This document shows positions 1 through 23,841 of a stretch of DNA of 24,484 bases, in pieces. The stretch spans positions 1-24,484 of the forward strand of contig NBIV01000476.1 in assembly GCA_003194525.1 (NCBI GenBank), written 5' to 3'. The stretch is from Gracilariopsis chorda. Taxonomy: Eukaryota > Rhodophyta > Florideophyceae > Gracilariales > Gracilariaceae. The first letter of the stretch is position 1. Every line of letters starts with the position of its first letter. The notes under the pieces are model-generated. The model did no database searches. It was not told where the DNA came from and was given only the letters and a program-made list of their open reading frames with translations. Made by a program: the position numbers and the translations under genes.

Positions 1-903
1 GGACCGTGCTGGCCGCTCAAAGCGTATCATCGAAAAGAACTTGGCCCTCGCCAAGCGACGCATATAGCGGAATTCAGCCCGAATGATCGGGTCGTGTCCA
101 GCACACCGCGTCTTGGCGCGCCGCGGGAATGCTTCTCCACAAGAGTGGTTCCAAACCCGCGAGGCGGTCGAGGTACCCCATTTCACCTGGGTGCGATACA
201 ATCCGATGTCGGAGCCCATACCATCGGGGATGGGATACTCGAAGGGAGCCCGGCGAAGCCGTTGATGAGCGAGTAAGACCAACGCCGCGTGCGCGGAAGC
301 TGCTGATTCCCGACCCCGTCGGATTACCGTGTGCACGGGTATCGCTACGCGATTTGCCCAATCCCACGAAGTGGTCACGATTGCCGGAACGTCACCCGGA
401 GCATTCCGTTTCCATCGGTATACATCGCCAGAAGGGCATCATTGAACACCGCAGTCGGGTGGAACCACGGCGCCAACCGGAGAGTCATGGCATGTTGCGA
501 AGGCTGCAGCCCGACCAGCATGTCGTACGACAGCCACGCTGCCATTAGATACCCTCCCGTGGGAGCCGCACTCGCATTTGCGCCTGTTTGTTGCGCTGGA
601 GTGGAGAGACCGCTCTGCGAGAGGCACGGAATGAAATCCGGAGAAGTACTGTAACGGTGTGTTGCTGCGCGTTGTTGCGTTGTTGTTGCCGTTGTTGTTG
701 CCGTTGTTGTTGTTCATCGTAGATGATGGAAGCCGAGCAATCGGAGAAAAAGGCCGCGAAAGCGTGTGTGTTGTTGGAAGAACCTCGGAAGAGTTGGTCG
801 CAGATTCGCTGTTCGCAGCTAGGTGCTCGTTACTCAGAGTGGGATGGAGAACCGGCGAGCCGGACTTACATTTAAGGACCTTGCCCGGTGCTTCCGTCGC
901 CAT
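1..903 (-). pseudogene. Antisense accessory ORF of Ty3 element A (5' part, decayed)
   Basis: This is a broken copy of the protein ORF at 7016-8840, read leftwards from an ATG at 903 and running off the window. The N-terminal part is low-complexity with an Asn-rich stretch. It then matches the other copy at GFxSVP, STPAQ, LRLAPxFHxxA, YxDGxG, SWDWxxRxAIPVH, ESAxxAHAALV, GExGYxxRLAxLE and AVCW. Reading needs frame changes near 606, near 395 (the latter shared with the other copy) and again around 220 and 70. It lies just inside the LTR that begins at 939, opposite in sense to that element's pol. The family is unknown to me: I see no membrane segment or known catalytic motif. Homology to the second copy is certain from the motif order; function is not inferable. 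Confidence 0.75.
661..715. repeat. GTT/AAC triplet repeat coding poly-Asn
   Basis: Imperfect GTT triplets with interspersed GCC. Read on the minus strand they encode Asn runs broken by Gly in the antisense ORF of element A. A shorter Asn run (MNNNNNQ) sits at the same place in the homologous ORF near 7170-7190, so the tract is a positionally conserved low-complexity part of the protein. Confidence 0.8.
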
Positions 904-938: not shown

Positions 939-1847
939 TGAAGTGCAATCCTCAAGGAGGAAGACTCAGCGATGCCCTGTGGACTTGGTGTTTTTGCCGC
1001 TTTCGCGTGTTTATGATTACTACCGCTATTAGCGGGTGTGTCAGCCCTCAGCGGATCCGCACTGTGCACCAGGTGCACAGTTGTGCATGCGCCGTGTGCC
1101 GCCCAAGGCGTGAGTGGACCACGTGTGACACGGATAGTCAAGAGGAGGTTGGCACCACGGTGTGGACATTTAGTTAACTTATATATATTATTTATTATTT
1201 ATCTACGCTACAGTAGGGAGATTACTACACTATATAGTGGCTTGGCGACCTCGCCCTGACACTGAGTAAACTTCCCCCAACCAGGGTTCTTGGCTCTAAG
1301 TCTTTTTCCGCTTTCGCGAGTCTTCTACACTCCTCGGAGGTAAAGCCGCGTTACTAACGGTAGACCTATCCACCCTGCGTCACTAGGAGTATCACCGCCT
1401 TGCACTTGTCACTTAATTCACCACCGCCGTGTTTCTCGCCCTGTATAGGGTTTCCTTTGTACTTTTTTTTCGTGGTCCCGTTTGCCCACACCCCCGTCGC
1501 CCCCCAATCGGGCATCCCCCGTATTTCCCTTACCCCACTCTCGTGGTTCCTACCCCTTTGTGTGGTTGCTCGTCACCGCTGACGCGTGTCTCTCGTGCCG
1601 GTATCCCGTGACGCCCCCCCCCCACTTACGTGGACTCGTACTCCTTGGAAGGGCTGTTTTCCCATTCGTGGTGATCCTAATCCTACCGTTTCAACTCTCC
1701 CCGCTTGGTGTGAGAGTGAGCCTCGGCTTTACCACCCGACTTCGTCGTGCTCATCCGGAGAGGCTCCGTTCGCTGTGTTACCCTCCAGAGGGGAAGATGA
1801 TTCCGAACGTCTTCGTGTGTTGTCCCGCTTGCGGGTATTGCACTACA
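939..1847 (+). mobile_element. 3' LTR of Ty3 chromovirus element A
   Basis: About 909 bp, opening TGAAGTGCAATCC and closing GGGTATTGCACTACA, so the termini form an imperfect inverted repeat with TG/CA ends. Both ends and several internal blocks align with the LTRs at 6166-6959 and 16860-17656 in reverse orientation: the AT-rich box, the GTGTCxCACxTG block, the CTCGGC-TTTACCACCCGAC block and the CGAACGTCTTCG block. It is clearly diverged from them, so A and C are related families or old relatives. The right end falls exactly where the copia reading frame resumes (1848), marking an insertion into element B. Confidence 0.85.
1176..1202. promoter_or_regulatory. AT-rich box in LTR A (possible core promoter)
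   Basis: A TATATATTATTTATTATT stretch stands out in a GC-balanced LTR. An AT box followed by TTAACTAAAT is kept at the equivalent place in both LTRs of element C (about 6760-6782 and 17455-17477). It could act as a TATA region for the element transcript, for the antisense ORF, or for both. Promoter function is inferred from composition and conservation only. Confidence 0.4.
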
Positions 1848-2177
1848 CTTATTTCTGTTCCCGTGCGGTACTATTATTGCCTTCATTGCGCGTTCTCCGT
1901 CTTCGTCCGTCTTGACCTTGTAAACCACGTGGGAAGTTATGACATTTGCGTTTCGGTCTACCTCGTGCTCCGGTATTGGTGTGTATGCGTCTACCCAATT
2001 GGTGTCGTGTTCTTTCTGGAAGGGCTCGTCGAGGATCCATGCTGGTGCAAACGCAAGTTCTTTCTTGTTCACCTGTTTACTCCCGATGTGGTCAAATATG
2101 TTGTTTAGCACTTTCTGCTTATCCGACTTTAGTTGAGTTGGTACGTTCTCCTTCTGTTCTCTTCCCGTTGCGTGCAC
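1848..2177 (-). pseudogene. Copia RT, N-terminal fragment
   Basis: The frame contains KKEL, WVDAYTPIPEHEV and VVYKVKTDEDGERAMKAIIV, the entry region of copia reverse transcriptases (canonically K-W-V-Y-K-x-K-x-D-x-x-G followed by KARLV). The similarity ends at 1848, exactly at the LTR terminus of element A; downstream residues in the same open frame come from the LTR and are unrelated. The catalytic YxDD box is therefore absent from this fragment. Confidence 0.75.
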
Positions 2178-2207
2178 GCCGATGTCCTTCCTTTCCGCTT
2201 CTTCAAT

Positions 2208-3306
2208 TCATGTCCGTGATGAAATCATGTGGTTGTTCGTCGGAAGCATATCTTTTGCTGAGCTCTCTTCCCTTCCCCCTGCTTCCGATGAATCAACTCC
2301 GTATCCAAGGGGGTCGTCGAGGGATCCTCGCATCAGTTCGGCTGTTAGCGGGTTATCTGGTACAAGACGAATGTCTTCGTAAGCGGTTTTCATTGGCCTG
2401 CCTTGCCGTGACCTTCGGGTAACAATATAGTGATCTCTTGCATCGAAGACTTCTGCTTCTGTCCAGTAAGCTGTTCCACGTGATGGTTTGATAAATACGT
2501 ACACTTTTCTTCCCTGAGGTAGCAAATAAGGGCTGGTAGTGATAGGTGACCGTGTCTTGAGGAGCCTGTGTAGCGCCCTTATCTCTACTTGCTCTTTGTG
2601 GGCGTCGAGGATCTCCTGCGATACAACCGAGGTCGGTATACCTAGCAGCGATGGGCTGTATCCTTTCACCAGCTCGAATGAGCTCAGGATGGTTGAACCC
2701 GAGAAAAGATTAGACAGAAACGTTGCTCTGGTGAGAATCGTGTGGTGGTTGTCTTGCGAGTTCTCCTTATTCAGCTTTTCGATGATCTTCTTGACCGTTT
2801 GGTTTTTCCTTTCCACTATACCCAATTTGTTGTGCCTTCTTGCTGGTCTTGGGCGATACTCAATTTTGTGGCTAACACAGAATGCTCTTAGGGATGGTGA
2901 ATTGTACTCATCATCTGCGGATAATCTTAGTGGACATCCGTGTCTGCATATCCATATGGATGCAATTTCCCCAGGGTCGTGGTTGTGGACCTATCTGTTA
3001 CGATGGCTGCCTCCGAATAGCGTGTGCCGGTATCTGTGATGTGGATTATCGTTCGTTTCTCGCTATGGATATCTATGAAGAAGAAGTCGATCTGGACTTC
3101 TTGTTTGAAGTGTTCGTTCACATGGGACAAAGATATCTTTCTCGTTTTTGCCGGTTGCCCCGATTGGGCACAAATGTCACATCCGTCTGATATGGAATCT
3201 ATAGCTTGTCTTAGTGCTTTGTCGAGTATTCCTGCGTCTTGGCATATCCTTTTCACTTCTTCGGGGCATGTTTATATCGATGTATCCGTTTGGCCAATGT
3301 TTTCAT
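2208..3306 (-). pseudogene. Copia integrase
   Basis: N-terminal zinc-binding residues are HRYKH (HX3H, near 3270) and CDIC (CX2C, near 3170), split by a frameshift near 3255. The core has the first Asp in VQIDFFF (near 3110), then after another frame break the second Asp in SADDEYNS (near 2910) and the Glu in GIVERKNQT (near 2815) with spacing close to the D,D35E norm. The C-terminal part has a KGYSP segment and an SH3-like strand-rich block (QGRKVYVFIKPSRGTAYWTE). It lies directly upstream of RT, as expected for copia. It is inactive as it stands because of the frame breaks near 3255 and about 2930, although catalytic residues survive. Confidence 0.85.
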
Positions 3307-3369
3307 AGCCCGGTTGTGATTTGGGTTAGAACTGGTGAGGAGCATTTTCGAGATTCTGGTTACGTCTGG

Positions 3370-3800
3370 CCGCGGGACTATAAGCAGTCTGAATCGCTTG
3401 TCCGAACTGTTTACATCGATGTATGTTGGAAGTGTGCGTGATCCTTTATCTTCTGGTCGTTCGATGATGATCTTTTTGTGTTTGCCCTCTTTGATGGTGT
3501 CCGCGTACTGTTTTGTGTCGAGTCCAACGATTAGTGGATCGTTTCCGTCGGTCAGATCGACTGTCAGAGAAAGCGGTTTGGAGTTCTCGTCGTCGACAGT
3601 TAATGTCGATGAGCATTTCACTGGTTTGGCGTTTATGCCGTTCGGGCCCCATCCTTGGAGGTATTCTTCTCGGGGAGGGTCTAAGTCTAGCTGTATTCCG
3701 AGTATATCACATATGCGCGCTGCTGTGGCAATACCTCCCGTCGATGTTGGTGCTCCTTCGTCTAGAATGGGATTAGGATCTGGTTGGAGCTCACCGATGC
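3370..3800 (-). pseudogene. Copia aspartic protease
   Basis: Reading leftwards from about 3800 gives PILDEGAPTSTGG, then ARICDILGI and PPREEYLQGWGPNG, then PLIVGLD. This is the shape of a retropepsin with the active-site loop and an I-V-G-L-D block. The catalytic triplet is DEG (3754-3762) instead of D-S/T-G, which should abolish activity. A gag-pre-integrase-like linker follows before the HX3H residues of integrase. Identification rests on loop context and position between gag and integrase. Confidence 0.65.
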
Positions 3801-3803
3801 TAC

Positions 3804-4156
3804 TTACTGAACATACTGCCTATCTTCTGGTTTCGATTCTTCCTCTTTCTCCGCCGTATCTTGTACATCGTCTGCCTTATGCTTCTTACTCCATGGTTGA
3901 TCCTCTCGTCCGAAGTTCGGTCTCTTCCTGTTCAGTGGATGCATTTCGCATTTACGATCTTTCCATTGATGATCCAGTTTATCGCATGCCAACAATTTCC
4001 TTTCTTACGAAATGATGTTCGCTTATGGTTGAATCCGGATGAACTAAATCCTTTTCCGGCTATCATAGTCTTTGTGATCTTAATCCCGCCTTCTGTATCA
4101 GCAGTTGCCTTCTTATCCGTTGGGTTGTCGACCTGTAGGTCTTTTATTGCTGCCAC
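3804..4156 (-). pseudogene. Copia gag C-terminal zinc-knuckle region
   Basis: A Lys-rich segment leads into KGNCWHA in one frame and CDKLDHQWKDRKC in another. Together they outline a C...C...H...C nucleic-acid-binding knuckle with a frameshift near 3990, inside the motif. Downstream is a charged linker (WSKKHKADDV, AEKEEESKPEDR). The spacing is slightly off the usual CX2CX4HX4C, so the exact ligands are uncertain. Confidence 0.55.
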
Positions 4157-4276
4157 AGCATCCTCTAGGCATATGAAAGATCATTCTGATTTCTCCGTCA
4201 TGACGAACTTATGTGGGTTCAAGATGTTGTTGATTGTTTCGTGACACTCTTTCACTTCAGCTACGTTGCTTTTCTC

Positions 4277-5041
4277 TCATGTGGCTTCTTGTACCGCGCT
4301 GCTGTCTTTCTCGGATCGGTGCTTGTTGAGGTTGAGTATATTTGTTAAGATACCCTTCAATTTGTGCAGCTTCGACGCCGTTATATGATGGTATGTATCG
4401 GATATAACTGGATTGACTCTTGCAGCTGCAATCAATGAAGATACGACGTTGTTGAATGTCACTGTTGATAGCTTCGAATTTTCTAATAGTACCATCGCAA
4501 ATGTCTGGCTATCTTTTCCGTTGTCCTTGGTTCCTGATAAGTTGAGATACGCCTGTGCGTGGCCATAAAACCGATCGGCGTATCTGGTGAAGTTCTCATT
4601 ATCTTGTCGAATCCAGTTGTGGATTGTTCTAATCATTTTCACTTTGCGCCGAACCGAGTCTGATACTGAGTGCTTGGCTACGAGGAATATGATCTTTTCC
4701 AATGCCTCGATACGTTGTTCATTGGGGGTGTTGCTGGTGCTACGTAGACATATTTCCCTTGCATCCACAGATCGATTTACAAGTTGTTGGTTTCCGTAAT
4801 TCTTGCAGGAGTATATTGTAAGACAAAGGGTGATGGCTACTCCTTTTGCTCTGTTGTCTCCTCCTTCTGCATAATTGAAGATTCTTTTTGGCCATATCCG
4901 AACACTTTGTCGCCACAAATATTTGTCAGTTGTGGATTCTAGTCTCGGTGGTTCGAGAAGGTGGATGGGTGAAGAGTGCGCTGGGCCCATAACTGTGGGT
5001 TGAGTGGACTCCATACTAATTACGGACTGTGACAAATACAA
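4277..5041 (-). CDS. Copia gag, capsid region
   Basis: The frame is 254 codons from the first ATG; the second ATG at 5014 (MESTQPTVMG) is an equally good start because it begins the likely structured part. It shows the helical make-up of copia gag: YLWRQSVRIW near the start, IYSCKNYGNQQLVN, EALEKIIFLVAKH, and NFTRYADRFYGHAQAYLNL, a typical gag_pre-like segment. It ends in a TGA at 4277-4279, with the rest of gag continuing in another frame. It follows the TATA-containing leader on the minus strand. Capsid function is assigned by position and style rather than by a signature motif. Confidence 0.65.
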   Translation of the reverse strand: MYLSQSVISMESTQPTVMGPAHSSPIHLLEPPRLESTTDKYLWRQSVRIWPKRIFNYAEGGDNRAKGVAITLCLTIYSCKNYGNQQLVNRSVDAREICLRSTSNTPNEQRIEALEKIIFLVAKHSVSDSVRRKVKMIRTIHNWIRQDNENFTRYADRFYGHAQAYLNLSGTKDNGKDSQTFAMVLLENSKLSTVTFNNVVSSLIAAARVNPVISDTYHHITASKLHKLKGILTNILNLNKHRSEKDSSAVQEAT

Positions 5042-6165: not shown

Positions 6166-6959
6166 TTTAGCACAATGCCCGGAAGCGGGAGTGCACCGAA
6201 AGACGTTCGGGATCTTTCCTCGTTAGAGGTGAGCCCAGTTGGGTAGAGCCCTCCCAGGAGTGGCACGACTATGTCGGGTTGTAAGGCCGAGGCCACCCGT
6301 CGCGACTTGCGCGGGGGGGTTGAGGCAAGAATCGGGTATCTGCAGGAGCGGTGTATCGGCGTGTTCGTCCTCTAGAGAGGTGAGGTTTCCACGTTAGTGG
6401 CACGCGCGAACATGAGCCGTGGGTAGCGGGAAAGCCACCCTGTAAAGGGAAAAATAAGGGGGAGCTGAGTCACGAGTGTCGTGACGAAGACTAACGGCAG
6501 TGCCGGTAAATAAATCTTATACAAGGCGAACACCAAGACAGCTGGAATAACAATCCGAATACTCGGGTCCTTTAGATAGGCAAGGGGTAGACTTCCCGTA
6601 TGCGACGGTGCTTCCCTCCAAAGAAGAGTAGAGAACACGCGAAGGCGGTGAGGTCTAGAGCTAATTCCCCAGGTTGGGGTCCCTTGTTGGGGAATGGTTA
6701 CTGGTGCGACGGCAACCCGCCGGCCCACTAAGTACTAACCATCCCAGAAGTGGGTGTGAAAATAATAAATAGAATTAACTAAATTACTCCACTTTGGTGG
6801 TTCATGCCCACTACTGTGGCCAACCGCCAATTGACTCTTCCGTGTCCCACATGTCAAATCCACTATTATTGGTCGTAGTTAATGCAATGACTACATTACC
6901 GAAACATTCGGGAAATCAACCAAGTACCAAGAATCCCTCGCTGAGGGCATTGTACTTCA
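6166..6959 (-). repeat. 3' LTR of element C
   Basis: About 794 bp, with imperfect terminal inverted repeats (TTTAGCACAATGCCC at the left end, GGGCATTGTACTTCA at the right end). It is collinear with 16860-17656, with around 45 differences including small indels by eye. The left terminus has drifted from the TGTAGTGC form of the other copy. It carries the AT-rich box near 6760-6782 and a palindrome at 6469-6485. Its right edge lies 57 nt from the antisense ORF start, so this LTR is the natural promoter candidate for that ORF. Confidence 0.92.
6469..6485. repeat. LTR palindrome, 7-bp arms
   Basis: GTCACGA-GTG-TCGTGAC is a perfect hairpin with a 3-nt loop. It is unchanged in the second LTR (17163-17179) although the LTRs differ elsewhere by about 6%. 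It could be a protein-binding dyad or an RNA structure; nothing more can be said. Confidence 0.7.
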
Positions 6960-7015: not shown

Positions 7016-8840
7016 ATGGGTGATAAAATTCCAAACCTCTCCGGGTCACCGGGTCAGGCCTCTGCCTCAGAGAAACAACCTCCTGCAAAAGCAGCGAACC
7101 AGCCTTCCACAAGTGCACGCTCCTCCTCTTCCTGCTCAACTCAGTCAGATAATGCCCTTTCGAAGGGGAATATGAACAACAACAACAACCAGCCTCCAAG
7201 ACCGACTCCAGTCGGGAACTTCACAACCGGTTTTTGGTCGGTACCCTTTCCACAAGGGAGGCGAACTCCTGCACAGCCGGCACACACTGGTGCAGCGTCC
7301 CAGCATGGGTTCCAACTTCCACCAGCAGTGGCTCCTTCCGGACTGATCCCGGCGGCGACTTGGCCTTCTTATAACGCCCTTGTAGGGTTAGATCAGATGA
7401 ATCGGAGTCACGCCTCTCGGCTCCGGCTTGCGCCGTGTTTCCATGCCATTGCTGCCCTCAACGAGGATTTGGTTACGGCCTACGCGGATGGTTCCGGTAC
7501 TTTGCCCGGGATCTACCCAGCGTTGTCACCTCGTCGTGGGACTGGCGGCATCGAATCGCCATCCCGGTGCACCATATCCGAAGAAACTCGGGAGAATCCG
7601 CGATTGCGGCTCATGCTGCGCTGGTGCGGATTGCATGTCAACAGCAGAGCTGGGTGCCTTTCGAATTACCGGTGCCTACCGGCTTTGGCTTCGACGTTAG
7701 CCTATTCCGCACGCGCGGTGAAATCGGTTACGGCGAACGCCTGGCCAGCCTCGAAACCCTCGCGTGGAGGAACCTTCCTGCTGCGCAGCAAGAAGCCGTG
7801 TGTTGGGAACGACCGATACTTCGGGATGAATTCCAGTACCTTTCCCGGCATTTCCGGTCCATTTTCCTCCAGAACTTCATCCGTTATGAACGGCGCTGGC
7901 GATCCCGATTTCGGTACTTTGTCCCGTATCATAACGTGGAGATTGAGCGGATTGCTCCGCCTTACCGACACGGTCGGTACGTCGCACTCCCCGAGTGGTG
8001 GAGGTTCCATGAAGCGTGCCGGGGTTGCTACGTTGAACTCCCGCCGGCACTCACGTACCTCGGTTCCTTTGTGATTCAGGGTCCCCGGTCGGGGTTTTGG
8101 TCGGTAATTGTAACCGAGTGGGCTGCCTGCACTGCGGCGTATATCCTCGCTGAGTTTTATGACCAGTATCGACTGTGGTTCATCCAACCACTTGTGCGGG
8201 CCGCTATTCGCAATCTGGACCTCAGCGTTCCCCTTGGGGTATTTCCAATAATCACAAAGTACTCCAATTACTTCCGTTTGATTGACAGTATTGACTGGCG
8301 CGAGATCCCGCTGAAACAGAGCGGTCGGCTTGACGGCGGCGGTGGCAGTACTGGTGGTCCGGGTCTTGGTAGAAACACCGCCCTTGCGGGGACTTCATCT
8401 ACTTCGATCCCTGGGAGTTCCGGGAGATTTCCTCCGAGGAGGCGAGGGAACTCTGCGACGAACTGCGGCACGTGCCGGACGACCACCCGATTGGGTACGT
8501 CGATTCCGACGATTATTACCGCGCGTATAGCGGGGATGGCCCGATGGTCGATGACGAACCCGAAGAGCCGGGGGACATGGAACTAGACGTTGCCGACATG
8601 GTCGTAGACGAATCCCCCGAGGCGGTGCCTCCGGTTCCCAGTCCTCCGACGGCGAGCGCTAGGCCTTCACTCCCCAGCGGGGGTACAGTCAATGAAAGCG
8701 ATATCATTGTCCGCTTCCTCCGCGGAGCGGGTTTAAGCGCTGCCGAGGTTTCGGGTGACGTCACCGCGATGGCGGATGCCTTGGCTTACCGCCTTGCGGG
8801 TGGTCACGCCCCGGACGATGGGGAGGGGTCGAACCTCTAA
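7016..8840 (+). CDS. Antisense accessory ORF of element C (unknown family)
   Basis: A protein of about 600 residues is readable from an ATG at 7016 in three frames: 7016 to about 7505, about 7505 to 8380, and about 8380 to 8840. The first part is Ser/Gln/Pro-rich with a short Asn run, then GFWSVPFPQGRRTPAQ. The middle is dense in Trp, Tyr, Phe and Arg (SWDWRHRIAIPVH, LPEWWRFHEACRGCY, TKYSNYFRLIDSIDWREI). The last part has FDPWEFREISSEEA, an acidic stretch and a Pro/Ser linker. Homology to the ORF at 1-903 shows the frame choice is real. There is no known enzyme motif, signal peptide or clear membrane helix. It converges with pol, leaving 187 nt between stops. Programmed frameshifting and simple decay are both possible. 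Env-like or RNA-binding roles would be guesses. Confidence 0.7.
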
Positions 8841-9027: not shown

Positions 9028-9558
9028 TTATACCACTTGGGCGTTGCACAGCGTAGCTGGATTTGCGGTACCCGCGCTGCGGTGATATTGGACCACCTTC
9101 GAACGAGGGAGGTGTTCGATGGGTTCCATGGTGTCCCAGCTTGGGTCATATCCGTACCAACGGACGCGGTATCTTAGAACGTCTTCCTGATTCCAGGTGT
9201 GCCCGACGATTCGGCCAATCACAAACTCTTGTTTGTATACCTGCCGGCCTTGCCGTGTTATGGTGACCTCGCTTGTCAGAGGTTGCCCGATGGACGGGAT
9301 ATTTCCCCTCAGGGGTGCGTCAGGATGCAACGTGCCGGCTTCGCTCGGAGGATACGGCGCAGAGTGCGGAATAATATCCCTCAAGAAGGTGTCTTCGTGG
9401 AACTGTTGCCGCTTACAGCGTAATTGGGTCGTACCGCTAGTTTGCGGGGGTCCTCTGTCCCATGTTGAAGGTAATCCGGTCGAACCGCGAGCTAGCGGGC
9501 ATGTTGCCGCTTTGGCGAAGTTGTGGAGGTCACTCCCTGGTAGGGCTTTCCGCGTCAC
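9028..9558 (-). pseudogene. Integrase C-terminal chromodomain
   Basis: In this 176-codon frame residues 111-160 (9079-9228) form a chromodomain: EFVIGRIVGH, then LRYRVRWYGYDPSWDTMEP and IEHLPRSKVVQYH. The positions that form the methyl-lysine aromatic cage in HP1-type domains are occupied here by Phe, Trp and Tyr, so histone-tail binding is plausible; in chromoviruses this domain steers integration to chromatin marks. The preceding 110 residues are Pro/Ser/Gly-rich linker. The frame continues pol from the right after frame changes. The stop shortly after the domain is close to the natural end of pol. Confidence 0.88.
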
Positions 9559-10404: not shown

Positions 10405-12146
10405 TTAGACGGAGCAGGGGAGTAATAGTAGGATATCCCGCATGGCGGGTGTAATGCGTGCCGAAGGGGCGGTAGTGTTAGGAGTACAGAAAGGTCCGTT
10501 TGGACCTGAACGATCCAGCCGAGCCGGCGGTTCCGACAAAGTCGGTAAATCTGAGAGGCCCCAAGTAGGGTGTGGTAGAGTAGTCGGTCTATTTAGTCCC
10601 GGGGTTTCCGGCGTTGCTGAGTCCGTAGAGACGGGTTTCCCTGTTTCCTGGACAACCTCAGACGAGGAAGGAGAGGCAGAAACAACACGATCGCGGGAAA
10701 TCCGCTCGCGTGCCTTGCCCATTTCCACTACGACAGTATCGGAGTTAACGGATACCACTTTAAACGGTCCATCCGCCACAGGCGAAAGCTTGTGACGCTT
10801 CTCCCGTTCCGGGTTATAATATGCCTTACGTATAAAGACGTAGGTATTAGCCCGTATGCGGGGAGCATGATCTCGTAAGCAAGCGTCGAAATCCCGCTTG
10901 TACGCGGCTTGCGCGCGTTCCATACACTTTCACGCTGCGGGGACCAGTTTAGTAAGCCATTTCTTCCATTCCTGGCGGTAGCAACCCACAGATGGGAAAT
11001 TGTCCAAGGTGGCTTGGGATTCTAACGCCACAGGCGGGGTGAACGAGATAGAACCAATTCGAACCGTGACACTCCAGTAGTCCGGTGAACTTGTGTATTC
11101 TATGCAAATGTTAAAGCATCTGCATACAAGTCCCAAGCTTTGGGGTGATCAGCAACGTAGGAACCGAGAGAGGCCAACAAAGTCTGGTTGAACCGTTCGA
11201 CTTGCCCATTGTACTGGGGATGGCAGGTAGTCGTGAACAAGTTCTTCACGTCCAGGATGCGACAAACATCCTGGAAGAACTTGGACGCGAACTGCCGTCC
11301 GTTATCGGAGAGCACCTCCACAAGAGGACCGTAGACAAAAATCCAGTGCGTTACCAGAGCCTGGGCCACGGTGAAAGCAGTTATCCTCCGAAGAGGGACA
11401 GTCCGAACAAGCTTTGAAAAGCGATCGGTGATCACAAGTAAGAACTTGTTGCCTCTCTTTGTAGTGAGGAAGGGTCCGAGAATATCGATTGACATAAACT
11501 CGAGTGGCGCCCTAGCAGGGAATAACGTCATTTTCTTCGCATTCCTGCTGAGCTTCACCCAGTTCTTCGAGCATTCGGTACAAAACCGCACAGTTGCGTA
11601 GCAATCAACCGCCATGGCGGGCCAGTAAAAAGCCCTTAGCAGGGTGAGGTAGAGCTTCCTCCCACCTACGTGGCCACCGAGATTCGCATAGTGCGAGAGA
11701 TGTAACACCCGCAACTGCAGGGAATGAGGTACCACAATTTGTGGGCGAGCTTCGACCAACCCAACGAGGTAGCCTTTATCGTTCACCTCGAACGGGAAGT
11801 CTTCGCAACCGTTTAAACGGGCACGAATCCTCATACAGAAGGGGTCACCGAATTGTTCTCGGATCAATTCCTCCGGTGAAACCGGTACAAAACTTCCCAG
11901 TAAGGGGTTCTCAGGGATCTCGCGGGATGCGAGTAAGTTGTCAAAGTCAGCATCTTCATCCCAGTCTTCTAGCCATTCCTCGAACTTCCACTCCGGTTCA
12001 TCCGGTTCTTCAGCCATGAAGCATGGAATGCCGTCATCCTCCGTTGGAAGTGCTTCCCCATTTGTGGGTAAACGCAACAAAACGTCGGCCTGGGTGTTGA
12101 GGTTGAGCCCCCTTTTTATATATGACTTGGAAGTCATATTCCACAA
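10405..12146 (-). pseudogene. Ty3 integrase with GPY/F module
   Basis: The frame 11100-12146 opens with the end of RNase H ([12 protein letters not shown]), then an acidic spacer (EDWDEDADFDN). The zinc-binding region is HLSHYANLGGH...CTEC. The catalytic core keeps all three acidic residues: MSIDILGPF, LSDNGRQF and NGQVERFNQTL. After one frame change near 11110 the chain continues through 10930-11136, and after another into 10405-10923, which holds the GPY/F-type module (YVFIRKAYYNPERE, KLSPVADGPFKVVSV). Integrase inserts the cDNA into the genome. The core is intact but the polypeptide is interrupted by at least two frameshifts. Confidence 0.92.
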
Positions 12147-12189: not shown

Positions 12190-13494
12190 GTTCATTAACC
12201 ACCTCAACGAGGAATGATCAGTCTACACGGTAAACTGAACTCCCATAAGATAGGGGCATAGGGTGGAAAGCGCCCACACGACGGCGAGACACTCTTTCTC
12301 CGACACAGAGTAATTCCGCTCGTGGACATTGAGCGAGCGCGACCAATAACCAATTGGCCTTCGGTCCCCCTCTGGGGTGGTTTGGAAAAGAGCACAATCC
12401 ACTTAGTAGTCGCTCGACTCCGTGTTCACGGACTACGGGAGTCCCAGTTTGGGTAAAGATGAGATAGGTGCTGACGTCACAGCCTCCTTTAAGGAGTTAA
12501 ACGCTCCAGATTGCTCGGGCGTGAAATGTCCCAATTGTGGGGATTTCATTTGCGTAACAACGCGTTCAACGGTGCCACGATATCCGAAGAGTTCGGGAAA
12601 AACCGTCGGTAGATTTTGACCAGCCCTAAAAAAGAGCGGAGTTCCGTGTGAGTGCGGGGTTCCTTAGCCCCAACGAGGGACTTGACTCGAGCCTTCTCGA
12701 TCATTAACCGTCCCGGACGGATGATCTGTCCCAGACACTTGACAGTATTTATGAAGAACTCGCGCTTCCTCAACTTGGGGGTAATTCCCGCATCGCGGAG
12801 CACGGTCAGAACGTCCCTGACATGGGTGAGATGGTCCCCAAATTATTGGAGAAGATGATAATATCATCCAGGTAGAACAGGCAGCTCCGCCACTTGAAGC
12901 GGTTCAATAGAATATCTATTGCACGCTGAAAGGTGGCGGGAGCGTTGGTCAAACCAAACGGCATCCACTTGAAGCGGTACGATCCTGCGTGGCAGGTGAA
13001 CGCGGTCTTATCGCGATCCTCCTGTCTAACAGGGACCTGCCAATAACCCCAATTGGCGTCCAAAGCCGTGGACACGGTAGCGTCTCCAAGGGAGTCGATG
13101 CACTCGTTCATACGAGGGATGGGATATGTGTCCCTAACAGTCACGGCATTGAGCCGGCGATAGTCGACACAGAACCTCCAGGTTCCGTCGGCATTCAAAA
13201 CCAGTACAACTGGGGATGCCCAGGGTGATTGAGCGGGCTCCATCACAGCTGCGCGGAGCATTTTGTCCACTTGGGACTGCTACTCTCCCGAGCGTTCGGT
13301 CTTGCCCTGTAAGGGGGTTGTGCCATCGGACGTGCACCCGGTAACAGATCTATCCGGTGTTCCGTAGCATTAATCTTGCCGAGCGAGCGATCCCACATCT
13401 TGATAATTTCCCGTAGCATTGCACGGAGTTTGTCGCGGTGTGACTCCGGCAGATGGCCGAGGTCTATATCTTCGAATGCCTTTATGGGGTCCAC
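12190..13494 (-). pseudogene. Ty3 reverse transcriptase and RNase H
   Basis: RT starts in the frame at 13494 with DLLPGARPMAQPPYR and continues in 12806-13270 (ASPVVLVLNADGTWRFCVDY, YPIPRMNECIDSLG, FKWMPFGLTNAPATFQRAID). The catalytic motif is YLDDIIIFS; the first acidic residue is in STALDANWGYWQVP. A single-base frameshift near 12845 moves reading into 12546-12803 (thumb, GITPKLRKREFF and LRSFLGLVKIYRRF). RNase H follows in shifted frames: YWSRSLN and SVSEKECLAVVWAL, then an in-frame TAG before TDHSSLRWL. Identity is certain from the canonical order; activity would need several repairs. Confidence 0.93.
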
Positions 13495-16859: not shown

Positions 16860-17656
16860 TGTAGTGCAATGCCCGGAAGCGGGAGTGCACCGAAAGACGT
16901 TCGGGATCTTTCCTCGTTAGAGGTGAGCCCAGTTGGGTAGAGCCCTCCCAGGAGTGGTACGACTATGTTGGGTTGTAAGGCCGAGGCCACCCGTCGCGAC
17001 TTGCGCAGGGGGGTTGAGGCAAGAATCGGGTATCCGCAGGAGCAGTGTATGGGGGTGGTCGTCCTCTAGATAGGTGAGGTTTCGCCGTTAGTGGCACGTG
17101 CGAACATGAGCCGTGGGTAGCGGGAAAGCCACGCTGTAAAGGGAAAAATAAGGGGGAGCTGAGTCACGAGTGTCGTGACGAAGACTAACGGCAGTGCCGG
17201 TAAATAAATCTTATGCAAGGCGAACACCAAGACAGCTGGAATAATAATCCCAATAATCAGGGTCCTTTAGGTAGGCAAGGGGGTTAGACTTCCCGTATGC
17301 GACGGTGCTTCCCTCCAAAGAAGAGTAGAGAAAACGCGAAGGCGGTGGGGTCAACAGCGAGTTCCCCAGGTTGTGGTCCCTTGTTGGGGGAGGGTTACTG
17401 GTGCAACGTCAACCCGCCGGCCCACTAAGTACTAACCATCCCAGAAGTGGGTGTAAAAATAATAAATAGAATTAACTAAATTACTCCACTTTGGTGGTTC
17501 ATGCCCACTACTGTGACCAACCGCCAATTGACTCTTCCGTTTCCCACGTGTCAAATCCACTATTAGTGGTCGTAGTTCATGCAATGACTACATTACCGAA
17601 ACATTCGGGAAATCAACCAAGTAACAAGAATCCCTCTCTGAGGGCATTGCAATTCA
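16860..17656 (-). repeat. 5' LTR of element C
   Basis: About 797 bp, opening TGTAGTGCAATGCCC on + and ending GGGCATTGCAATTCA. It is collinear with 6166-6959 and includes the palindrome (17163-17179) and AT box (about 17455-17477). Its first base lies 3 nt from the primer-binding site, fixing the inner boundary. The last nine bases overlap the start of a third LTR in opposite orientation, so the outer edge is ambiguous by about that much. Confidence 0.92.
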
Positions 17657-18260
17657 ATACTCAAGGGAGGGCGGCCTTGCCGTTTCACCCTGAAATAAAG
17701 ACAAGCTGTGACTCGGCTCTGAGTTTATCGCCTGCGCGAAGTGACCAAATCCTGCTGGGGTTTCACCGCGTTCAGTCTCGTTATAATCACCCGCATAGTA
17801 TCACCAAGGGCCGCTGATCTGTATTACCCCGTGGGCTCGCCCAGTGTTCACTGTTTTTACCGTTTTGGTTACTTTCTATTGTGGGAACGGATAGCCGTTC
17901 GACTCAGTATTGAATTTTGCCGTGCTGGCTGAACAAGAAATACCCCCCACCGCCGGGTCTCTTTCGGCTTTCCGCACGACCCGCCGGGCTGTACCCTCCC
18001 TTTTGGTTTCTCACCTTTTTCCCTTTTCCCTTTCTGGAGTCTCCGTGTACCGGAATACTGCTCACACGGACCTGTGCACTACGTTGACCAGCTGGTAACC
18101 CGATTCTCGGTACCACCTCCGTCGGTATAGCCGGACGCCATCTCGGTTTTACACCCGAACACCGTGTGGTACGGAGGACCCTGTGGCTGCGCCTACATCG
18201 CAAGAGAGCAAGGCTGCGAACACCTTCGGAGGATTTCCCGCATAGGGATATTGCTCCACA
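17648..18260 (+). mobile_element. Divergent LTR D, related to LTR A and C
   Basis: It starts TGCAATTCAATACTCAAGG (15 of 20 positions match the first 20 bases of LTR A) and ends TTCCCGCATAGGGATATTGCTCCACA, which parallels the end of LTR A. An internal CTCGGTTTTACACCCGAACACCGTG block matches the CTCGGCTTTACCACCCGAC block of A. At 613 bp it is shorter than its relatives and lacks their AT box. No element body follows on the right and element C abuts on the left, so it is a solo or stranded LTR. Confidence 0.65.
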
Positions 18261-18710
18261 GTCTTCTGTATTGCATACATAAGTCGTTCTGCCGGCATCT
18301 TTATCGCTCAATGGTTCGGCGTTGGAGAGGAAATAGCAAGGTTCGGGAGCCAAGCAACCTCCTGTGTCACTTGCTCACTTTTCTGTCAGCTTGTGTTGTA
18401 TATCTCATTCCAGCGCTTCGTCTCCCATCTTTCATCAAACCGAAATCTCATTACAGTTTCAATACTTTTCATGGCCTCAAAGTTCAGGCGTGTATCATTG
18501 ATACCAGATTAAAACTATAAGTATAGCGGGTCACAAGATTCTCCCCTGAGACGTACATGTTCTTCTTTCTTATCATTTAGACGCCAAATGACCTCTCCCA
18601 ATATCTTAACGACGTTGTTGCTCCTTTTCATGTCCTTCACTTGTACTGGTCTTGGTATTGGCTCCCGTGTTGGACAAAGAATGAGAGCAGAAAAGTTCTT
18701 CATGGAAGCA
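18261..18710 (-). pseudogene. Decayed coding traces of unknown gene
   Basis: Short minus-strand frames look protein-like but are broken: 18515-18703 (VKDMKRSNNVVKILGEVIWR, then RLNDKKEEHVRLRGE), a piece near 18380-18490 (ETVMRFRFDERWETKRW), and one near 18265-18360. They may be parts of one decayed gene or mobile element. No family is recognised. Whether they once joined the basic ORF at 5706-6165, now 12 kb away across the retrotransposons, cannot be told from this window. Confidence 0.3.
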
Positions 18711-19712
18711 TCTTAAAATACAGAGACTGAGCTGGGTGAAAAGACACCAGAAAGTCTGACAATGATAAAATGGTAGAGATAAACAAATAAAACATTCTTT
18801 GGACTAAAAACCAGCAGAAGATAATTGTAAAATCGTCTCAAGAGGTTTAATATCGCACTTTGATGCTGTACAAAAGCCATGACATAACTATAGAGATTCC
18901 TTTGGGAACTTATGAATAAATCCATCTCACAAGATGAATAGAAACACATTTATTCCCAATCGATATTTATTGGTAACACCACAGCATTATCAATAGTTTA
19001 AAATGCCCAAACTGCAAAAAGAACAAACAAATTGATTTAAAGTCCAACCATGTGCAAGAAGTGGTGAGGCAAGATACGTTTTGCATAAAATATATACAAA
19101 CTGAAAGGTACTCTTTTTCAGTGTTGAGTAAGTCGTTGAAAAACTTGCCTACAAATATGTGATTTGTTGTACAAAGTAAAATGTAACTGCTAGTTTATTT
19201 TTAAAACTATTATAACGATTTTGTTTTCCTTTTATGGCTTTTAATTATTTTCCGCTTTCGTTACAGAAAGGTGAATTTGTATTTGTTTTGTATGGTTTTG
19301 GCTAATATGAGGACTTTTGTACCTTATCATTTTGGTTCAGATACTTTTTACAGGGTCTTGCTGCGCAAAGAGGTTTTTAACGGTGGCAGCTTTGGTCAAT
19401 TGCTCGAGATAGATACTAGTAGTACGCAATTATGATACTTTGTTCATAACTGCGAGGGACGGTGTGAATGGCTGTGCCAGCCGATAAGTGAAACGTGTAG
19501 ACGTACATGTTTCACTGAACCTGACAGTCAGATTATCAATAAAGCCGCCGGCGGCTCTGGCTGACCTCGTGTGTCGGTCAAGCCGCAAGGCACCACCCCC
19601 ATGTTTTTCAAGATAGAGGGGTGTGGTAACGATATTTGGGGGTATACAGCGTACTTTAAGTATTATTTATGTTAAAAACTTCGAAAATGAATGACCCATT
19701 TGTTGGTACTTT
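18711..19712. other. AT-rich intergenic DNA with palindrome cluster
   Basis: Markedly lower GC than the surroundings, with no credible ORF. Three inverted repeats lie close together: GGCTG-TGC-CAGCC (19470-19482), a 13-bp-arm hairpin with one mismatch and a 4-nt loop (19487-19516), and the perfect 12-mer GCCGCCGGCGGC (19544-19555). I see no RNA gene. Confidence 0.5.
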
Positions 19713-21100
19713 ATGATAAGAGTGTTGTTCCCTGGGACGACGCCGCTCCCATCGCGCCCGCACTCGCTCCTCACCTCCGCCACCCCCACCTCCGCTGCTG
19801 CCTCCGCCTCCGCCGCCGTTGCCGTTCTCGCGTGTAGCAGCAACCGCCTCGTACCATGGCCCTCCCCCACGCGCCCCGTTGCCACCGTACTGGACTACTG
19901 CGCCGGCCTGCATAGTGCGCACAATGCACAACAAGCTCCATCGATTTGACCACGCGTTGCGCAGGTACGCCACGAATGGACGCCAGTGTCTTGGCCTCTC
20001 TCTCTCTGACTGCATACCTCGTTCAAACGCTTCAGGAAAGCCCAGACGTGGCGGGGCTCGCTGTGCTTTTGGGCGCCGTGCGCCCCCTTCGCCACGCGCC
20101 CAGTGCTTGCTTGGTCGTGCCGCATATCCGCTAGAAGCCTATGAATATATCGCGCCCGCCGCCGCCGCTGGCGGGTGATGGTACGTGTTCCTAATTTGTG
20201 CAGTCGTTTCTCGTCGATGTGGATCTTGTGATGGTGTGAAATGCGCCGCTCTGAACGAAACTGTCGCTATAGCGACAGCTCGCGTGCCGTCTTCCAAAGG
20301 GTTGGGGCGAAAACCCACATGGTGTGTCTAGATGTGCGTGAGAATGGTCAAGGCGATCTTGGTCGTGACTATGGACGACCAGTGTGGCGTTTCAGACGCG
20401 TTGTCGGGAGAGGTGTAAGACCTGTGCAAACCCATCTCGCTCACCAAGCACTACATTGAGCAGGGAGCTGACGAAATCTTCTTTCTGAATATCACTTCGT
20501 TCCGCGGGGAGCTACTGGGAGAGGCAGCAATTGTGGAAGTGCTGCGCCAGACGTCGTACCATGTGATTGTGCCGCTCTGCACTGGCGGCGGCATCGGGGG
20601 TTACACTGACGGCGTGGGACAGCGCTGCGGTGCGTTGGATATGGCGGCACTTTGCTTTCGCACCGGTACGGATAAAGTATAGGTGGGCAGCGACGCCGTC
20701 TACGCGGCTGAGCGTTTTATGTCGGGCGGCGGCGTGACATCCGGGTCATCTTCTATCGCGCAGATTTCGAATCTGTCCGGCACGCAAACAGCGAGGGTTT
20801 CAATCAACACGCGGCGCGTGCGTGTGGCAGAGACATGTTGCTTCGACACCATCCAGAACGCGGACGGGCGATGCTGTTGGTAGCAGAGTATGGTGAAGGG
20901 TGGACGCACGTCGATGCAGCTGGCGCGGGCCGTGCAGGCGCTGAGCGCCATCGAGGTCCTGCTCAACTCGATTGCTTCGACCTACAACTAATATGGCTGG
21001 TACGCCACATGAAAACGACCGGGACCGTCCTGGTGATCGGCAGTTCCTCAATTCCTGGGAAACGCCACTATCGCGTGTCGTTCGCTGCGTACATACCCAT
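19713..21100 (+). pseudogene. HIS7: HIS7-type imidazole glycerol phosphate synthase pseudogene
   Basis: The intact enzyme is a glutaminase-cyclase fusion making IGP and AICAR in histidine synthesis, plastid-located in plants. Here a Ser/Ala/Pro-rich leader precedes VATVLDYCAG (about 19878), the glutaminase N-terminus. About 50 residues are missing before LRRYATNGRQCLGL, where the active-site Cys position reads Ser. ESPDVAGL and VPHI follow in another frame. The cyclase has CLDVRENGQGDL (20325), a frameshift, QGADEIFFLNITSFRGE, GGGI, VGSDAVYAAE, ISNLSGTQ and KGGR, then NSIA where the second catalytic Asp should be, and VRHMKTTGTVLVIGSSS. Stops lie at 20416, 20680, 20881 and 20989. No introns are needed. 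The GC-rich base composition differs from both flanks. It is clearly non-functional. Confidence 0.85.
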
Positions 21101-22580: not shown

Positions 22581-23841
22581 TCATACGACTCCCGAGAGAC
22601 CATAAATGTAAGGTCTCGTGGAGACGAGAGCTTCGGTGTTCTTCGGACGTTCGAGTGGAGGTCTGAAGTCCAGTTCGTGGCTGCACCAGACACTACCAAC
22701 CTCCGTAAATATCGAATCAACGCTTCTGAGATGTCTCATCGCATACACGCGGAACATATCGAAGTCTATCGTATCTCCCAATATATCACGAAGAACAGTT
22801 TCCAATCGGTTTATGAGAGCGTCCATGACGTCCGGGAGCGGCCGTTTGAGCATCCAAAGTTGTATCTTTACCCGACTCCTCCCGTTCCCCTCTTTTCGCC
22901 CATACTTCCGACAAGCTTTTTTCGTGCCATCAATAACAGCACCATGAGCGACACCGAGTGACTTTTCAAGACAAGAGGCAAGACAATCAGAAGAAAGCTC
23001 CGCCATTGGATCCCAAGAGTCGAAGCGCAATACTTTGCGGTTCTTGCAGTCTTGGTCAACCTTTATCCGGCTCTCAACGAAAGACAGGAAACAACTTGCT
23101 TCATCTCCTGCGCATGCACTTGCTTCTTTGGCTTGATACGCACATCTCAGTATATACTCGGATATAGCACACATATGAATAACAAGTTCTTGCATTCTTG
23201 CGAGTGTATTGTCTTCAAACCACTTCTTTGCAATTGTTCCGTCGCTTCTGCCCGGCTGAAGAGAGCTATTGCATTCTCGGGCAAGAGAAGCGATGTACCC
23301 TCCTATCGCCAACCACCATATTTCGTCCATACAACAACTTTAAACCGCTGTAGACGATCATAGAGGAGGGATAGCGAGACATGGCGTCAAAAATGTTCCT
23401 TCCCCGGCCTTCTCCTGGGAGTTTCGCCGACAGGGCACAAACGTTCTCCACATCCTAGTCTCACCCTTCCAGTACTTCGAGCCATTCATCAAAATGCGCA
23501 CGTCGTACTGCTTGACAATCTTTTGAGCAAAGGACCGCGCGTTGTAGAAAGACTTTGTGTTCTGATTTCTCAAAGAGGCCATGCGCCTCTTCAGTTTCTT
23601 CGACCTCCGCATCCATACGTTCTCGTACCCAGCGCACAACATCTGGAATCGATTCAGAAAGTACTATCTTCCGTGGTTGCAGTTCTTTTCTAGCTGCGTT
23701 TTCACGAACCTTCACATTACTGATGATCCTCTTCCTATCACTCTTTGTGATCTTCTTCGACACTCCTTTCCAGGCAGTTGCACCTTTGGCATCGCTGTTT
23801 GAGGCCCTTGCTCTTTCTTGTGCCATGCCTCTCTTCCTCAT
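22581..23841 (-). CDS. Hypothetical gene, possibly two exons
   Basis: The main frame is 22581-23330 (249 codons from an ATG just after an in-frame stop). It has a hydrophobic start (MDEIWWLAIGGYIASLA), a Cys-containing helical middle (ISEYILRCAYQAKEASACAG) and a helical C-half (MDALINRLETVLRDILGD). Upstream, 23461-23841 encodes 126 codons that are Lys/Arg/Glu-rich (SKKITKSDRKRIISNVKVRE). A donor GAAGG/GTGAGA (intron base 1 at 23464) and an acceptor TTTAAAG (ending at 23338) would remove 127 nt and join the frames into one protein of about 378 residues. The acceptor is weak (AAG, poor pyrimidine tract), and a competing frame (23358-23642) also overlaps the upstream part. No family is recognised. 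The main frame is likelier real than the join. Confidence 0.4.

What the first reader, a model, noticed from the sequence alone, without database searches (positions are those of the whole stretch)
7016..8840. Unknown protein encoded antisense to pol inside a chromovirus
Between the chromodomain end of pol and the 3' LTR, on the opposite strand, lies about 1.8 kb coding for an aromatic- and Arg-rich protein with an acidic tail. A homologous copy sits in the same relative place and orientation in element A (1-903). Shared motifs in order include LRLAPxFH, YxDGxG, SWDWxxRxAIPVH, AHAALV, GExGY and AVCW. The two copies differ greatly in DNA, yet conserved residues persist and one length difference is two codons, which points to past selection on the protein. 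Antisense ORFs at this position are known from some plant Ty3 elements, but I do not recognise this protein.
Basis: partly seen in the sequence, partly recalled or inferred. Interest (0 to 1): 0.75.

Follow-up and report, generated by a model that had tools for sequence, protein, structure and literature searches.

The report
Antisense gene in seaweed retrotransposons
A family of jumping genes in a red seaweed carries an extra gene written backwards at its far end, coding for an unknown protein that natural selection has preserved, which suggests that the jumping gene needs it.

Summary
[quoted passage not shown] An antisense ORF (aORF, 7016-8840 +) faces pol tail-to-tail beside the 3' LTR. 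This copy is broken into three frames, but its closest relative is open for 608 codons, and 8 of 8 fetched loci of a younger subfamily have intact ORFs (595 or 615 aa) facing a chromodomain pol. The protein is real and selected: dN/dS between subfamilies is 0.195 (bootstrap 0.15-0.25); four of the five other frames give 1.39-2.49, the fifth (0.34) shares wobble positions. Four of four more distant aORF families also face a chromodomain pol, and aORF and pol divergence correlate (r 0.84). Named homologues are all Gracilariaceae. No Pfam, PHROGs or PDB family was convincingly matched; both structure models are too poor to use. The closest known kind is the antisense accessory ORF of plant Grande, RIRE2 and Retand and fungal Boty; Retand's TRP28 domain was not matched. 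Best guess: an antisense-expressed accessory regulator of retrotransposition. The gene is well supported; transcription was not tested and the function is inferred.

The parts
6173..6959 (-). 3' LTR of the main element (element reads on the minus strand)
   Evidence: 94.7% identical direct repeat of 16867-17656; repeat also found. No matching target-site duplication was evident by eye.
7016..8840 (+). antisense ORF (aORF), ATG to stop, broken into three frames in this copy (about 7016-7525, 7510-8391, 8385-8840)
   Evidence: tblastn with the intact relatives; ORFs; indel counts
9028..9558 (-). C-terminal part of pol with chromodomain
   Evidence: Pfam Chromo PF00385, E 2.9e-07
11100..12146 (-). 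integrase part of pol
   Evidence: Pfam Integrase_H2C2 E 4.7e-11 and rve E 2.2e-10
12806..13270 (-). reverse transcriptase part of pol
   Evidence: Pfam RVT_1 E 8.4e-23; 92% aa identity to the younger subfamily over 144 residues
14997..16196 (-). 399-aa ORF in the gag position (gag by place only)
   Evidence: no Pfam family
16867..17656 (-). 5' LTR of the main element
1..903 (-). element A: homologous aORF, cut by the contig end and broken
   Evidence: tblastn matches at 1-399 and 399-611; 92.7% DNA identity of 1-737 to family locus L073; N-terminal ORF 439-903

Best explanation
This is a third gene of a Ty3-type, chromodomain-bearing LTR retrotransposon lineage in Gracilariaceae red algae, encoded antisense between pol and the 3' LTR and convergent with gag-pol. 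Shown: it codes for a protein of about 530-630 aa under purifying selection, it faces a chromodomain pol in six diverged families, and it is intact in young-looking copies. Inferred: it is transcribed from an antisense promoter in or beside the 3' LTR. The protein has a low-complexity N-terminus, a conserved Arg- and aromatic-rich, lysine-poor core of about 320 residues, and an acidic C-terminal tail. It most likely acts as an accessory regulator of retrotransposition (nuclear or nucleic-acid-associated), as proposed for plant aORF-3R proteins and retroviral antisense proteins. I put about 0.95 on a selected protein gene of the element and about 0.4 on the regulator role.
For: Architecture: LTR pair; RT, IN and chromodomain on minus, aORF on plus. 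8 of 8 loci of the younger subfamily have an intact aORF and a facing open pol tail with a Pfam Chromo match. 4 of 4 more distant families have a facing pol tail with a Chromo match (one, L077, at 24.6 bits, just under the 25.1 cut-off). Of 156 hand-pooled aORF places and 150 chromodomain places from capped lists, all 26 pairs within 2.5 kb beyond the aORF 3' end are on opposite strands and none lies upstream; these 26 are young, closely related copies, so they are not independent. Selection: dN/dS 0.195, core 0.165, tail 0.169, against 0.114 for RT and 0.57 for the pol C-terminal tail; other frames 1.39-2.49, except the one sharing wobble positions, 0.34. Co-inheritance: aORF and pol-tail identities correlate over six families, r 0.84, 2 of 720 relabellings as high. 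Some aORF-linked chromodomains sit in uninterrupted frames of 1875-1885 aa. Function hints: core pI 6.6-9.6 and tail pI 4.1-4.6 in the 10 of 11 proteins that could be split. Literature: maize Grande gene23 protein nuclear and antisense-transcribed (PMC7264820, passages).
Against: No expression data were available. The function rests on composition and analogy. The core is not basic in every member (P0009: net charge -1, pI 6.6), and P0015 has an acidic N-terminus instead. Both structure models are poor (mean pLDDT 44.5 and 49.0) and gave no fold match. No DNA-binding or bZIP Pfam domain was found. A simple motif scan showed no canonical TATAAA in the antisense direction. dS of the aORF (0.92) is over twice that of RT (0.40) between the two subfamilies, though measured on different copies; recombination or a local rate difference could be involved.
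Confidence: 0.5

Rival explanations
1. The aORF is a structural or particle protein (second capsid-like or envelope-like gene) made from an antisense transcript, rather than a regulator.
For: Arg-rich core, about 600 aa, constraint close to that of RT.
Against: No transmembrane-like stretch by a 19-residue hydropathy window in 10 of 11 proteins (best 0.88-1.49); P0014 reaches 2.15, in its N-terminal extension outside the core. No similarity to the ORF in the gag position (hhalign probability 0.12%). Antisense expression is unusual for a structural gene (established knowledge).
Confidence: 0.2
2. A captured host gene or fragment spread by one retrotransposon lineage, with a host-derived enzymatic or binding activity.
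For: Transduction is a usual proposal for extra ORFs (PMC7264820 and PMC11963269, passages). A host origin cannot be excluded.
Against: Three protein searches and the Pfam scans found no recognisable cellular relative; each protein search scored only about 8000 candidates sharing short exact words, so remote relatives can be missed. Named hits come only from Gracilariaceae. The gene is old within the elements: aORF identities go down to 35% between families of one genome.
Confidence: 0.2
3. The antisense RNA, not the protein, is what matters (double-stranded RNA with gag-pol transcripts; self-limiting silencing).
For: Convergent arrangement in the 26 listed pairs and the 12 loci read directly; the idea is in the literature for plant aORFs (PMC7264820, passages).
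Against: An RNA-only role does not predict dN/dS 0.195 in this frame with 1.39-2.49 in four of the other five. It may act in addition.
Confidence: 0.08
4. Neutral leftover: an open frame kept by composition or by recent copying only.
For: The window copy is broken, and 39 of 40 copies of its subfamily carry frameshifts or stops in the alignment; singletons in that subfamily look neutral.
Against: Shared variants and between-family comparisons show constraint; six diverged families keep the ORF.
Confidence: 0.02

Closest known systems
Antisense additional ORFs between pol and 3' LTR (aORF-3R) of plant Grande, RIRE2, Retand and PvRetro13
   Same: Same place and orientation; said to be present in most copies of a family and conserved about as well as other retrotransposon proteins; antisense transcription reported for Grande (PMC7264820, passages and section 5).
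   Different: Those are plants, and Retand is a non-chromovirus lineage (PMC11963269, start of abstract and passages). The protein here has no TRP28 or SMC Pfam match. The host is a red alga and pol bears a chromodomain.
Boty of Botrytis cinerea and Sclerotinia sclerotiorum (antisense aORF)
   Same: Antisense ORF between pol and 3' LTR outside plants (PMC7264820 section 5).
   Different: Boty's protein was not compared here; that Boty is a Ty3 element is recalled.
HTLV antisense proteins (APH-2; HBZ recalled)
   Same: Antisense gene of a retroelement with a promoter inside the 3' LTR; regulatory (PMC11963269 and PMC7264820, passages).
   Different: No bZIP Pfam match; no sequence relation seen; HBZ's bZIP nature and shorter length are recalled.

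Membership tests
Antisense aORF-3R of LTR retrotransposons | ORF between pol and the 3' LTR, antisense to gag-pol | tested here: met
   window; 8 of 8 younger loci and 4 of 4 distant families for the facing pol; 26 of 26 listed pairs
Antisense aORF-3R of LTR retrotransposons | Present in most copies of a family, conserved like other element proteins | tested here: inconclusive
   Conservation is met: dN/dS 0.195 vs RT 0.114. The share of copies or chromodomain elements lacking it could not be counted, because the loci were found through the aORF and the lists are capped.
Antisense aORF-3R of LTR retrotransposons | Antisense transcript | not testable with these tools
   no RNA data
Retand (plant) aORF with TRP28 domain | TRP28 (PF04195) domain | tested here: not met
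   no such match at E<=1 for P0001 or for any of the 9 members of A2
Chromovirus (Ty3) | chromodomain at the C-terminus of pol, after integrase | tested here: met
   window: integrase and Chromo in order on minus; Chromo at the pol end in 8 of 8 younger loci and 4 of 4 distant families, one slightly under cut-off
Chromovirus (Ty3) | RT in the chromovirus clade | not tested
   no tree was built
Envelope-like aORF | sense orientation | tested here: not met
   aORF on the opposite strand to RT and IN and to chromodomains
Envelope-like aORF | transmembrane segments | tested here: not met
   maximum 19-residue hydropathy 0.88-1.49 in 10 of 11 proteins; P0014 2.15, in an N-terminal extension
HBZ-like antisense regulator | bZIP domain | tested here: not met
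   no Pfam bZIP match at E<=1
Any protein of known fold | structural match | tested here: inconclusive
   models of mean pLDDT 44.5 and 49.0; no useful match

The most novel reading that the evidence does not exclude
Red-algal Ty3 elements evolved, independently of plants, fungi and retroviruses, an antisense accessory gene. Its protein is of a new family (perhaps a new fold) with a lysine desert that could protect it from ubiquitin-dependent turnover, and it controls or protects the element (copy-number control or counter-silencing). Antisense accessory genes at the 3' LTR would then be a recurrent design of LTR retroelements across eukaryotes, not a plant oddity.
Probability: 0.25. Interest if true: 0.75.

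Novelty: new variant of a known kind. Interest (0 to 1): 0.55.

Why it matters
Antisense genes beside the 3' LTR are known from plant and some fungal retrotransposons, where their function is unsettled, and from HTLV. A separate, strongly selected case in red algae, in chromodomain elements that look young and have long open pol frames, makes the arrangement look recurrent and offers a test system: many intact copies in a genome of about 91 Mb. It also gives a context to proteins now listed only as hypothetical in Gracilariaceae genomes.

Tried and rejected

Distant relatives: IMG/VR by conserved peptide patterns (68 stretches, none confirmed) and plasmids by tblastn gave nothing. In PHROGs 1 of 9 members touched phrog_8260 at E 0.064, and in Pfam three families matched one member each at E 0.095-0.26; all treated as chance.

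A longer start inside the LTR (663 aa in L002) was rejected, because the younger subfamily's frame opens only 14 codons before the shared ATG.

A dual-coding reading (sense ORF under the aORF) was rejected: the opposite frame with low dN/dS (0.34-0.56 over nine pairs) is the one whose third positions coincide. A gag origin was not supported.

LTR mates of the younger subfamily were sought by DNA. The capped list held 40 places at 99-100% identity, the query's own included, and 4 weaker ones; pairs could not be assigned.

Literature: nine answered searches listed no title or abstract on an antisense ORF in red-algal retrotransposons. I saw listings and abstract starts, plus passages of four papers (PMC11963269, PMC7264820, PMC5408684, PMC9762032) and one section. 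Only open-licence papers are held. The G. chorda genome paper (recalled) was not in those listings.

Full report
What is there. The window is a 24.5-kb contig of a 91.3-Mb, 1081-contig genome. Protein P0003, annotated as Gracilariopsis chorda BWQ96_03215, matches this genome at 100% over its first 491 residues, so the genome is most likely that red alga (inference). The main element reads on the minus strand: 5' LTR 16867-17656, an ORF in the gag position, RT, integrase, chromodomain, and 3' LTR 6173-6959; the LTRs are 94.7% identical. The antisense ORF (aORF) lies on plus at 7016-8840, starting about 57 bases inside the 3' LTR boundary and ending tail-to-tail with pol.

State of this copy. 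The frame is broken into three pieces here. Against the closest copy (L002, 99.6% identical over the ORF) there are four frame-disturbing indels; over 4.8 kb the two loci differ by 30 mismatches and 7 gap openings, so assembly error is possible but not shown. L002 is open for 608 codons. Of 40 copies of this subfamily aligned to L002, only L002 is free of both frameshifts and stops. The sequence beyond the element's 5' LTR (17700-20700) recurs at 97-100% identity over its whole 3 kb at five other places, and in part at a sixth, so the window lies in a duplicated or haplotype-split region.

A younger, intact subfamily. A protein search of the same genome gave 72 places (capped), many at about 70% identity. 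All 8 loci fetched from that group (L063-L070) have an intact ORF of 595 or 615 aa and a facing open pol tail of 386-437 aa with a Pfam Chromo match. The sequence around the ATG (GAAAATGGGTGAT) is the same in 7 of 7 loci compared, L002 and six of the eight. Forty LTR places, the query's own included, are 99-100% identical to the LTR used as query. Some aORF-linked chromodomains lie in uninterrupted frames of 1875-1885 aa (C23, C66, C676, C2).

How general the arrangement is. Pooling by hand the places gives 156 aORF places; 81 have no stop inside the match, an undercount because matches that run past the natural stop count as having one. One search listed 150 chromodomain places. Within 2.5 kb beyond an aORF 3' end there are 26 pairs; 26 of 26 are on opposite strands, with 239-270 bp between the two matches, and no listed chromodomain lies within 2.5 kb upstream of an aORF start. 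The lists are capped, and these 26 are closely related young copies. Four more distant families (35-55% aa identity to the others) were read directly: 4 of 4 have a long open frame facing the aORF that ends in a Chromo match, 3 above Pfam's cut-off and one (L077) at 24.6 against 25.1 bits. Identities of aORF and of the pol tail correlate over six families (r 0.84; 2 of 720 relabellings as high), as expected if they were inherited together.

Selection. Between the window's subfamily (L002) and the younger one (L064) dN/dS is 0.195 (bootstrap 0.15-0.25): N-terminus 0.30, core 0.165, acidic tail 0.169. Read in the other five frames the same alignment gives 1.80, 1.85, 1.39, 0.34 and 2.49; the 0.34 frame is the one that shares third positions. 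For comparison RT gives 0.114 (144 codons, dS 0.395, window against C23) and the pol C-terminal tail 0.57 (L054 against L065). Three pairs within the younger group give 0.26, 0.28 and 0.42; there, one of the other frames falls just below 1 (0.93-0.97). Three of the four between-family pairs further apart give 0.19-0.30, with dS at or near saturation; in the fourth dS could not be computed. Among 39 old copies, singleton variants have N/S 3.05 and are spread evenly over codon positions (147, 155, 132), as in neutral decay; variants shared by 2, 3-5 and 6 or more copies have N/S 1.78, 1.55 and 1.11. Old copies decay; source lineages were selected.

The protein. It has a low-complexity N-terminus, a conserved core of about 320 residues and an acidic tail. 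Arg is 9.6-12.5% and aromatic residues 10.8-13.7% of the core segment in the 11 proteins scanned; tail pI is 4.1-4.6 and core pI 6.6-9.6 in the 10 that could be split; P0015 could not be split and has an acidic N-terminus. Lysine is scarce: over six aORFs 21 lysines against 68.7 expected from position-specific base composition, while four sense ORF pieces have 45 against 43.5. The window's own subfamily is less depleted (7 against 12.2). There is no Pfam match for P0001 at E<=1, no PDB sequence match and no useful structural match. Three protein searches returned 16 rows, 13 distinct proteins: three from G. chorda (P0003, P0009, P0011), one each from Gracilaria domingensis (P0010) and Agarophyton chilense (P0016), and eight from unnamed lgn or ena contigs. 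The three named species are all Gracilariaceae. Each search scored about 8000 word-sharing candidates only, so remote relatives may be missed.

How it most likely works. The gene is expressed antisense from or beside the 3' LTR (inferred; no RNA data; a simple scan showed no canonical TATAAA). Its product is retained because elements that have it spread better or last longer (inferred from selection). Arg-rich core, acidic tail and the precedent of the nuclear maize Grande gene23 protein (PMC7264820, passages) favour a regulator of transcription, RNA fate or copy number. A structural role and a captured host activity are the main rivals. An RNA-only role and a neutral leftover are disfavoured by the dN/dS results.

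What is known. Antisense ORFs at this place are described for plant Grande, RIRE2, Retand and PvRetro13 and for fungal Boty (PMC7264820, section 5). In Retand 97% of clusters contain antisense ORFs encoding TRP28, of unknown function (PMC11963269, passages). TRP28 was not matched here. The arrangement is therefore a known kind; the protein family, the host group and the chromodomain setting are new in what I could search.

Noticed in passing
aORF families in L002, L064, L071-L074: Lysine is depleted about threefold relative to base composition in the antisense proteins (21 vs 68.7 expected over six), not in four sense ORF pieces of the same kind of element (45 vs 43.5).
   Followed up: partly
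window 7016-8840 and 12806-13270, with counterparts in the younger subfamily: Synonymous divergence of the aORF (0.92) is over twice that of RT (0.40) between the two subfamilies, measured on different copies.
   Followed up: no
window 1683-5041, minus strand: Another decayed retroelement-like set of ORFs, with an integrase-like piece at 2208-2825 by eye only; no Pfam match passed its cut-off.
   Followed up: partly
window 17700-20700: Sequence beyond the element's 5' LTR recurs at 97-100% identity in five other places of the assembly (C702, C518, C375, C709, C243), suggesting recent duplication or split haplotypes.
   Followed up: partly
window 22581-23841, minus strand: ORFs of 249 and 126 aa with no Pfam match above its cut-off.
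   Followed up: no
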